Shown: positions 7,025 to 24,129 of the stretch, piece by piece
How positions within the stretch are numbered: the first letter of the stretch is position 1
Layout: each line of letters opens with the position of its first letter
Source of the DNA: Nodosilinea nodulosa PCC 7104
GTDB taxonomy: Bacteria; Cyanobacteriota; Cyanobacteriia; Phormidesmidales; Phormidesmidaceae
Assembly (NCBI RefSeq): GCF_000309385.1
Contig: NZ_JH976537.1
Coordinates: 4,117,785 to 4,181,784 of the forward strand
Reading direction: 5' to 3'
DNA length: 64,000 bases
Program-made: the position numbers and the translations under genes
Notes under the pieces: model-generated
The model's input: the letters and a program-made list of their open reading frames with translations, nothing else
Told to the model about the DNA's origin: nothing
The model's database searches: none

Positions 7025-7513
7025 CTATACAAGGGGCCAGACAGCCAGCCCCAGGGCCAGCAAAAGAGCCATTACCCCTAGGGTACGGCGAATGCGCTGG
7101 AGCACGGGCTGCACTTGATAGTCAACAATGAGGCGATCGCGGTTTGAAACCTCCTCTGGCTTAATCCAAAGCTGACCGTCGTACCAGCCCGACTCTTCGT
7201 AGGGTACCGTGGTTTGCCGGAGCCTTCCGCCCACATGGGCCCAGCCGACATAGAGCTGGAGCAGAGCCAGGGTGGGTAGCACCAGGGCTCCCATGGCGGC
7301 GCTGAGGCTGAAGGGCATGGGGTGCTTTGCTGGGGTAAAGCTGGCTGCGGCCATGGGACCGGCCACGGCCCAGCCAACTACCCAGAGTACTACCAAAGGC
7401 TTGAGGTATCCCTTCAAATTGCGGCTACCCCAGCCGTAGAACCAAGAATCTCGCACATCCTGGTATTCGTTGATGGGCTGTTGCTCAGCCGGTACCGGAC
7501 ATCGTTGAGGCAT
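7025..7513 (-). CDS. ycf36: CGLD27 / Ycf36 family membrane protein (DUF1230)
   Basis: A 162-residue protein with the N-terminal signature CPVPAEQQPINEYQ and SWFYGW that defines the DUF1230/Ycf36 family, conserved across cyanobacteria, algae and plants (CGLD27). Three hydrophobic segments are visible (about residues 40-62, 70-95 and 140-160), so it is a membrane protein, probably thylakoid or plasma membrane. Function is not settled; the plant homologue has been linked to iron homeostasis. It lies between rsfS and the asparaginase gene on the same strand. A GTG at 7525 could add four residues. Confidence 0.85.
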   Translation of the reverse strand: MPQRCPVPAEQQPINEYQDVRDSWFYGWGSRNLKGYLKPLVVLWVVGWAVAGPMAAASFTPAKHPMPFSLSAAMGALVLPTLALLQLYVGWAHVGGRLRQTTVPYEESGWYDGQLWIKPEEVSNRDRLIVDYQVQPVLQRIRRTLGVMALLLALGLAVWPLV

Positions 7514-21560: not shown

Positions 21561-24129
21561 ATGGCAACTCAGATCGATGGCCCCCTGGGGCCGGTCTTCA
21601 ACCAACGCAGCATGATTACCGCCCTGTCTCTGGCCAACCAGAACAGCTCTCTGACCAACCGGGTGCGGGATCTACCCACCCCTCAATTCATCAGCCTGCT
21701 CGACCAAATTACCGCAGAATTTGAGCATTTTTTGCGGGCCATCGACATGATCAACAACGAGTCGTTGGAGATCATGCTGGAGCAAATTTTAGAAGCCTTC
21801 ACCCTCAAGATTGGCCAAATTCTCCAGGCCGAACGCACCACCATTTTTATGGTGGATCAAGAAAAACAGGAGCTGTGGTCGAAAATTGCCCAGGGCGACG
21901 GGGAGCGATCGCTCGAAATTCGCGTCCCTATGGGCAAAGGTATTTCGGGCTTTGTGGCCACCCACGTGCTGCCGCTCAACATCCCCGACGCCTACGCTGA
22001 CGATCGCTTCGATCCCACCCACGATCAAAAGACCGGCTACCGCACCCGCAGCATTCTCTGCATGCCGGTACTGAGCAAAAAAAACCGACAATATCGTGGC
22101 CGTGGTGCAGCTGCTCAACAAGCTCAACAGCACTCCCTTTGACGAGCAGGACGAGCGCCACTTCAAAGAGTTTGCCGAGTCGCTGGGGGTAATTCTAGAA
22201 AGCTGCAACTCGTTTTATATCGCCGCCCGCAACCAAAAAGGCGTCGCCGCCCTGCTCAAGGCCATTTCGTCCCTAGAGCAGAGCCTGGACCTGGAGAAAA
22301 CCCTGCAATCGGTGATGGAGGAAGCCCGCCAGCTGATGCAGGCCGATCGCAGCACCCTGTGGCTGATCGACGAAGAGAGCGGCGACCTGTGGTCCAAGGT
22401 GAAGTCGGGCGACGGCAAGTCCCTGGTGGAGCTGCACAACCCTATCAGCAGCGGCATTGTGGGCCACGTGGCCACCACCGGCGAAATCCTCAACATCCCC
22501 GATGCCTACCAAGACCCTCGCTTCAACCCCGACGCCGACAAGCGCACCGGCTACACCACCCGCACCATTCTCTGCATGCCGGTATATAACTCTGGGGGCA
22601 AGCTGATCGCCGTCACCCAGCTGATCAACAAGGCCCAGGGCACCTTCACCACCTCCGACGAGGCCTTTATGAAGGCCTTCAACATCCAGGCCGGGGTCGC
22701 GCTGGAAAATGCCAAGCTGTTTGAGAGCGTCCTGGTCGAAAAACAGTATCAGAAAGACATTCTGCAAAGCCTCTCCGACGCGGTGATCTCCACCGATATG
22801 GAAGGCCGCATTGTCACCATCAACGACGCCGCTCTGGACCTGATTGGCTGCCCGGAAGATACCGATCACAGCCGCACCATTCGCGATCGCTGGCAAACGG
22901 CCCTGCTCAGCCGCCCCGTGTGGGACGCCATCCCCATCGAAAGCCTGCGCTTTCGCCTAGAGGACAGCCTCAAAAACGGGGCCCGCCACTACGTGCCCGA
23001 GCAGAGCCTGCGGGTGGCCGTGGCCCCCGGTCCCGGCACCGGGCTAGATCCCGTTTCTGAGCTGGCCCTAGCCGATCCGAACCATCCCGAAATCTATCGA
23101 GCCTGGGGCGATCCGTCCGCTCCGCCCCTGCCCGCCGATCTGGTACAGCGCATTGAGCGCAGCATCAACCTCACCGTCAACCCCCTGACCAACCCCGAAG
23201 GCGGGGTGCTCGGCGGCCTGCTGGTGCTCGAAGACATCAGCCAGGAAAAGCGGATGAAGAGCACTCTCTACCGCTACATGACCCCCGGCGTGGCCGAGCA
23301 GGTGATGGCCCTGGGCGACGATCTGCTCATGAAGGGCGAGCGCAAAGACGTCACGGTGCTGTTCTCCGACATTCGTGGCTACACCACCCTGACCGAAAAT
23401 TTAGAAGCCGACAAAGTGGTGGAAATGCTCAACGCCTACTTTGAAACCATGGTGGAGTCGGTATTCCACTTCGAGGGCACCCTCGACAAATTCATTGGCG
23501 ACGCGCTGATGGCGGTGTTTGGTGCCCCGCTACCCCTCAGTAACCACGCCTGGGCGGCGGTGCAGAGCGCTCTGGACATGCGGCGGCGGCTGGCAAAGTT
23601 TAACGCCGAGCGGGGGGTTTTGGGTCAGCCCGAGATTCGCTTTGGCATCGGCATTAGTTCCGGCGAGGTTGTTTCGGGCAACATTGGCTCCCAGCGCAAA
23701 ATGGAGTACACCGTCATCGGCGATGGGGTCAACCTCAGCTCTCGCCTGGAAGGGGTAACCAAAGAGTATGGCTGTGACATTGTTATCAGCGAATACACCT
23801 ATGCCCTCTGCGCCGACAAAATCTGGGTGCGCGAGCTAGACCGCACCCAGGTAAAGGGCAAACATCAAGCCGTCGGCCTCTACGAACTCATTGACAAGCG
23901 CGACACGCCCCTCAGTGCCGACACCGAAGCCTTTCTCGCGCTCTACGCCAAAGCCCGCAGCGCCTACACGGCCATGCGCTTTGACGAAGCCCTGAACCTG
24001 TTTGGCCAGGCCCAACAGATGCGCCCCGACGACAAGGCCGTAGCGGTTCATCTCAGCCGAGCTCAGCAGTATCGGGTGCAGCCGCCGCCGGAGAATTGGA
24101 ATGGTGTCTATGTGATGACCACCAAGTGA
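21561..24129 (+). CDS. GAF-GAF-PAS class III adenylate cyclase, frameshifted in this sequence
   Basis: Reads as one protein of about 855 residues if one base is removed from an A8 run (22077-22084). As given, the first frame stops at 22142 and the second opens from about 22096. Order: GAF 1 (about 60-220, interrupted by the shift after ILCMPVLSK), GAF 2 (about 230-390), PAS-like (ILQSLSDAVISTDMEGRI), cyclase catalytic domain, and a TPR-like tail. The catalytic domain keeps both metal aspartates (FSDIRGYT and KFIGDALMAVFG), the ATP-selecting Lys before FIGD and Thr in YTVIGDGVN, and the Arg in NLSSRLEG. It should make cAMP under GAF-ligand control. The shift may be a mutation, a sequencing error or slippage. 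Confidence 0.82.

What the first reader, a model, noticed from the sequence alone, without database searches (positions are those of the whole stretch)
22077..22084. Adenylate cyclase split at an A8 tract: mutation, error or slippage
The GAF-GAF-PAS-cyclase gene reads through only if one A is removed from AAAAAAAA. All catalytic residues downstream are intact, so decay looks recent if real. Long A runs are sites of polymerase slippage, which in some bacteria makes both truncated and full proteins.
Basis: partly seen in the sequence, partly recalled or inferred. Interest (0 to 1): 0.5.

Follow-up and report, generated by a model that had tools for sequence, protein, structure and literature searches.

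The report
One-base frameshift splits a cyanobacterial cyclase
In this one cyanobacterial genome a conserved adenylate cyclase gene carries one extra A in a run of A's that cuts it in two; it looks like a recent, strain-specific slip (or a sequencing slip), not a designed switch, although mobile elements in the same genome keep similar A runs that hint such runs may be partly read through.

Summary
A8 lies at 22077-22084; the ATG ORF (21561) stops at 22140-22142, and the GAF-B/PAS/cyclase part continues in the +1 frame to 24129. In 23 same-genus loci none has eight A's, 12 have A7 and 11 an interrupted run, all one base shorter; 48 of 48 relatives' loci keep one frame across the site. So this genome alone carries a +1 A. 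Constraint downstream looks normal (omega 0.05-0.09; 0.068 mean between relatives): the change is very recent, an assembly error, or leaky. Programmed slippage is not supported. Accidental rescue is possible but unshown: two IS630-type families here have A8 with the same frame requirement; in one, 8 of 9 junction-spanning copies from four genomes have A8 and the ninth A9. The error test is partial: 58 of 60 long coding runs are in frame after two ordinary gene pairs are set aside; the other two are this gene and a nitrate transporter split at C8. Reads are needed. Known kind; modest interest.

The parts
21561..22142 (+). First ORF (ATG, 193 aa): N-terminal region and most of GAF-A, then about 19 residues of wrong frame
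   Evidence: 1ykd match at 1.3e-52
22077..22084 (+). A8 tract, one A longer than in relatives
   Evidence: 0 of 23 same-genus loci have 8 A; 12 of 23 have A7
22087..24129 (+). Downstream +1 frame: end of GAF-A with NKFDE-type motif, GAF-B, PAS, class III cyclase domain, stop at 24127-24129
22096..22107 (+). Possible restart codons GTG 22096, 22102, 22105 in the downstream frame (next ATG 22315)
   Evidence: use as starts is inferred, not shown
22140..22142 (+). Stop codon of the zero frame, after 18 codons counted from 22086

Best explanation
A CyaB1/CyaB2-type adenylate cyclase gene (GAF-GAF-PAS-cyclase), single-frame in the relatives examined, gained one A by replication slippage in an A7 run in this strain's recent history (shown: the extra base relative to relatives; inferred: that it is real, recent and made by slippage). 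The main product would be a 193-aa GAF-A fragment with no catalytic domain. A little full-length enzyme may still arise when RNA polymerase drops one A or adds two, or by a +1 ribosomal shift (inferred); a -1 ribosomal slip would enter the wrong frame. A 677-aa protein without GAF-A could also start at GTG 22096-22105 (inferred). It is an accidental, perhaps leaky, frameshift, not a programmed switch.
For: 0 of 23 same-genus loci have 8 A's and 12 of 23 have A7 (these are 23 of the 25 other same-genus genomes searched, two had no match). 48 of 48 relatives' loci keep one frame across the site. The neighbours on both sides are kept in 14 of 19 named loci. Omega downstream, own against 12 relatives, is 0.050-0.090; between relatives it averages 0.068 over 66 pairs, range 0.021-0.100. 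All 7 two-sided coding tracts of 9 or 10 nt are in frame, so gross homopolymer miscalling is not seen, though 7 is few. The C-run of a nitrate transporter differs in length and breaks the frame in two genomes, C8 here and C6 in G023. Frame table: zero frame stops at 22140, -1 frame at 22190, +1 frame open to 24127. For the leak only: two IS630-type families of this genome have A8 with the same requirement; in one, 8 of 9 junction-spanning copies have A8 and the ninth A9. Baranov et al. 2005 (PMC1088944, passages) infer that slippage is productive on eight A's in Nostoc sp. PCC 7120 IS elements.
Against: No reads or RNA were available, so the extra A could be an assembly error. A second conserved gene is also out by +1 at an 8-base run, and twelve runs of exactly 100 N lie in the stretches examined (scaffold gaps, or stretches the service withholds). 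Own-only residues downstream number 10, more than in 11 of the 12 relatives, which could be slight relaxation. Against the leak: Baranov et al. also A's a non-slippery pattern when describing pseudo pseudogenes; in E. coli and Buchnera insertions, not the deletion needed here, predominate in homopolymer runs (PMC5574713, passages); and in plastids a +1 A is corrected mainly by ribosomes, with no RNA polymerase slippage seen above 5% (PMC8254509, abstract and one section).
Confidence: 0.55

Rival explanations
1. Assembly or sequencing error: the strain has seven A's and an intact gene.
For: The only two frame-breaking long tracts confirmed by comparison with relatives are both +1 at 8-base runs. 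Selection is not clearly relaxed. Twelve 100-N runs lie in the stretches examined.
Against: 58 of 60 two-sided coding tracts of 8 or more nt, and 7 of 7 of 9 or more, are in frame. In the 864 kb, 32 A/T and 53 G/C 7-mers lie inside one coding frame; one G/C 7-mer was flagged and is judged an ordinary gene junction from its layout, not checked in relatives; 26 7-mers at coding edges were not resolved. An independent frame break at the same nitrate-transporter run in another genome suggests that long runs do vary, unless that draft is wrong too.
Confidence: 0.35
2. Programmed or selected transcriptional slippage: the A8 is kept on purpose to make both a short GAF-A protein and the full enzyme.
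For: IS630-type elements of the same genome have A8 or A9 junctions (5 of 27 DDE_3 places); the downstream part stays constrained.
Against: 0 of 23 same-genus loci have an out-of-frame run, and in 11 of 23 the run is broken by other bases. 48 of 48 relatives' loci keep one frame across the site.
Confidence: 0.04
3. Functional split or shortening: the downstream ORF is expressed from a GTG restart and gives a cyclase without GAF-A, with looser cAMP control.
For: Three GTG codons lie in the overlap, 35-44 nt before the upstream stop. In Anabaena CyaB2, GAFb without GAFa binds cAMP with 16-fold lower affinity and less selectivity (PMC4411481, passages).
Against: No ATG before 22315. The relatives examined offer no version split here (48 of 48). 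No expression data.
Confidence: 0.06

Closest known systems
CyaB1/CyaB2 adenylyl cyclases of Anabaena (PDB 1ykd is the CyaB2 tandem GAF)
   Same: Tandem GAF and C-terminal class III cyclase; 1ykd is the best PDB match of both ORFs. That CyaB1/CyaB2 also have a PAS domain is recalled
   Different: Here the gene is split inside GAF-A by one extra A
'Pseudo pseudogenes' of Baranov et al. 2005 (PMC1088944, passages)
   Same: A one-base extension of an A run breaks a conserved gene and lengthens the run, so that some full protein may still be made by slippage
   Different: Theirs go from 8 (called non-slippery) to 9 A's; here 7 to 8; no slippage measured here
Oenothera I-iota atpB, +1 A in an oligo-A run (PMC8254509, abstract and one section)
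   Same: Single A inserted in a coding A run
   Different: Run of 11 A; rescue there is mostly ribosomal; organelle, not a free-living cyanobacterium
IS630-type transposases with A8 junctions (this genome); IS630 of Roseiflexus is named in the review PMC5009743 (passages)
   Same: A8 run, full protein needing net -1 A (or +2)
   Different: There the out-of-frame run is shared by copies in four genomes; in cya it is unique to one genome

Membership tests
CyaB1/CyaB2-type adenylate cyclase | Two N-terminal GAF domains, a PAS domain and a class III cyclase domain | tested here: met
   Pfam GAF in ORF 1; GAF, PAS (weak), Guanylate_cyc in ORF 2. Named relatives L031-L045 have one ORF of 850-913 aa (stop to stop) matching both parts; Pfam was not run on them
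CyaB1/CyaB2-type adenylate cyclase | Adenylate-type catalytic residues present | tested here: met
   FSDIRG, LDKFIGDALMA, YTVIGDGVNLSSRLE align with 3r5g, 1wc1, 6fht and 2w01 (2w01 has E for the K); role of each residue recalled
Programmed transcriptional slippage gene | Out-of-frame slippery run conserved in homologues | tested here: not met
   0 of 23 same-genus loci; 48 of 48 relatives' loci in one frame
Pseudo pseudogene (Baranov 2005) | Frame-breaking extension of a coding A run in a gene intact in relatives | tested here: met
Pseudo pseudogene (Baranov 2005) | Run length slippage-prone in the organism and full protein made | not testable with these tools
   Only indirect: A8 kept in 8 of 9 IS630-type copies, A9 in the ninth; no RNA or protein data
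Assembly artefact | Reads disagree with the assembled run length | not testable with these tools
   No reads; indirect census only
Decaying pseudogene | Relaxed constraint or further disabling changes | tested here: not met
   No further stop in the downstream frame; omega within the range of relatives, although own-only residues are on the high side (10, second of 13)

The most novel reading that the evidence does not exclude
The new A8 has turned the cyclase into a low-level, noise-driven dual producer: RNA polymerase of this lineage, which IS630-type elements appear to exploit at A8, makes a minority of in-frame mRNAs, so cells hold a GAF-A fragment, a little full enzyme and perhaps a GAF-A-less cyclase, and cAMP signalling is retuned by one base that can revert by replication slippage.
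Probability: 0.1. Interest if true: 0.45.

Novelty: new member of a known kind. Interest (0 to 1): 0.22.

Why it matters
If the A is real, it is a clean one-base test case for whether cyanobacterial RNA polymerase rescues A8 frameshifts in ordinary genes, with an internal yardstick (IS630-type A8 junctions) in the same genome, and for how easily cAMP signalling tolerates loss of a GAF domain. If it is an error, it warns that genes at 8-base runs in this assembly (here a cyclase and a nitrate transporter) may be wrongly called pseudogenes.

Tried and rejected
Recombination near the tract: protein identities of the two parts of the gene point to different nearest relatives, but sliding DNA identity shows no step at the A8; dropped.

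Ribosomal -1 frameshifting on the A run: rejected as the rescue route because the -1 frame ends at 22190-22192; +1 ribosomal shifting is not excluded.

Widespread frameshifting. Two further tracts flagged by the census (L182 C8, L200 G8) are ordinary neighbouring gene pairs with overlapping stop and start; relatives' loci were fetched but not aligned at the site.

Limits of the census: tracts within 300 nt of a stretch's end and repeats of the same context were dropped before the count; it did not place the IS630-type junctions in the two-sided class; 44 of 176 tracts with coding on one side only were not resolved. Only the first 100 listed places of each run type were shown, so about the last third of the genome was not examined.

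The plasmid collection gave no match in 'near' mode. Paper searches for a cyanobacterial cyclase frameshift (2 papers, by their titles not on this) and for a guessed strain name (9 papers listed, none opened) gave nothing used; the strain was not identified. The paper searches supplied the papers cited.

Full report
What is there. The run AAAAAAAA is at 22077-22084. The ORF from ATG 21561 (193 aa) carries a GAF domain and stops at 22140-22142. The frame that continues the protein opens after a stop at 22072 and runs to 24129; it carries the end of the first GAF domain, a second GAF, a PAS (weak but over one model's cut-off) and a class III cyclase domain. Both ORFs have 1ykd as best PDB match; PMC4411481 (passages) names it as the Anabaena CyaB2 tandem GAF structure. 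Catalytic motifs align with solved cyclases. The NKFDE-type motif of GAF-A (NKLNSTPFDE, read against the motif named in PMC4411481) lies beyond the A run, so the first ORF lacks it. The own genome has 14 Guanylate_cyc matches in all, so this is not its only cyclase-type gene.

What relatives say. The window's genome is G000 (6.89 Mb, 2 contigs). The 19 named related loci carry names such as Nodosilinea, Leptolyngbya and Phormidium, so the organism is a leptolyngbyoid cyanobacterium; the strain was not identified. Of 57 genomes searched with the 5' part of the gene, 39 matched, the window's own included. Loci came from 23 of the 25 other same-genus genomes (G018 and G021 had no match): 0 of 23 have eight A's, 12 have exactly seven, 11 have a run interrupted by other bases, and all 23 align with one base fewer at the site (my count from the printed rows). 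Of the 29 non-own loci fetched, 27 gave an alignment there; L027 and L029 did not, and the four more distant rows (L025, L026, L028, L030) align with gaps. Of 48 relatives' loci (29, 19, with some genomes probably in both sets), 48 keep one frame across the site. The loci were cut by their flanks and reach at most 584 of the 680 downstream residues. Two loci (L019, L046, probably one genome) end early further downstream. The dienelactone-hydrolase-like gene and accD flank the gene in the same 14 of 19 named loci. So this genome carries a +1 A that none of the relatives examined shares.

Age. Omega for the downstream block, own against 12 relatives, is 0.050-0.090; the 66 relative pairs average 0.068 (range 0.021-0.100). 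Own-only changes there are 8/3/16 at codon positions 1/2/3, with 10 own-only residues: second highest of 13 rows, after L037 with 13/7/15 and 13 residues. This is no clear sign of relaxed selection.

Error or mutation. I took 40 stretches of 20 kb and 76 shorter ones of the own genome, 1,112,464 bases with the window and some overlaps, aimed at 8-base runs. Of 176 runs of eight or more that were scored, 62 have coding signal on both sides; 58 are in frame and 4 are not. Two of the four are ordinary gene overlaps. The other two are this gene and a NarK-type nitrate transporter (best NCBIfam match of both halves TIGR00886, each half below the whole-protein cut-off) split at C8 in L068:7119-7126. 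Of 11 relatives aligned there, 10 are in one frame; one (L139, genome G023, a draft) has C6 and is also out of frame. All 7 two-sided coding runs of nine or ten are in frame. An error-prone technology should have hurt the longest runs most, which tilts me to a real mutation; but 7 is few, and two +1 events at 8-base runs, with twelve 100-N runs (scaffold gaps or withheld stretches), keep an assembly error likely enough that reads must decide.

Slippage. The net change needed is one A fewer (or two more). A -1 ribosomal slip gives the wrong frame, ending at 22190. A DDE_3 search of the own genome gave 27 places. Five of them lie beside an A8 or A9, two beside an A7, and 20 show no run of seven or more A's. 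One family (3 copies, ORFs) and one single element (ORFs) have A8 between two ORFs with the same frame requirement as cya; L289 has A9 and needs the opposite shift. For the first family, 9 copies span the junction: own 3, G011 4 and G022 1 with A8, G024 1 with A9 (87-100% identity). The alignments of three G011 copies and of the G024 copy contain a one-base gap elsewhere, which I did not follow up, so not every copy need be active. The first family shows HTH and DDE_3 domains; the single element's second ORF passes the NCBIfam IS630 cut-off. Baranov et al. 2005 report Nostoc sp. PCC 7120 IS elements with 8-10 A's, infer that slippage can be productive on eight A's there, and describe 'pseudo pseudogenes' made when an 8-A run, which they call non-slippery in that passage, becomes 9 (PMC1088944, passages). 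Against rescue: in E. coli and Buchnera insertions predominate in homopolymer runs, whereas here a deletion or a double insertion is needed (PMC5574713, passages); and the plastid atpB case shows ribosomal, not transcriptional, correction (PMC8254509, abstract and one results section).

Judgement. A lone, probably recent +1 slip in a conserved CyaB-type gene, possibly leaky; assembly error the main rival; programmed slippage unsupported by relatives. It is one more member of a known kind.

Noticed in passing
L068:6499-7996 (G000:C1 about 902.9-904.4 kb), tract 7119-7126: A NarK-type nitrate transporter is split by +1 at C8; of 11 relatives aligned, 10 are in one frame and one (L139, G023) has C6 and is also broken: a possible variable tract in a nitrate transporter.
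   Followed up: partly
L077:4051-5122, L104 and L106 (own genome); L111, L121, L127, L131 (G011); L112 (G022); L113 (G024): IS630-type transposase split into HTH and DDE ORFs at A8 (A9 in L113), full protein needing net -1 A or +2; several copies in other genomes also have a one-base gap elsewhere.
   Followed up: partly
L094:1024-2074 and L289: Two further IS630-type (DDE_3) elements split at A8 (same requirement) and A9 (opposite shift).
   Followed up: partly
L019 and L046 (probably one genome): The orthologous cyclase ORF ends early, after about 378 residues of the downstream part, before most of the cyclase domain.
   Followed up: no
window 21561-24129 against L002-L049: Protein identity of the two parts of the cyclase points to different nearest relatives (96.5% up with L031 and L003, 94-95% down with L005 and L013), without a DNA breakpoint.
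   Followed up: partly
L064, L071, L072, L073, L076, L090, L092, L097, L099: Twelve N runs of exactly 100 bases in the own-genome stretches examined: unknown-length scaffold gaps, or stretches the service withholds.
   Followed up: no
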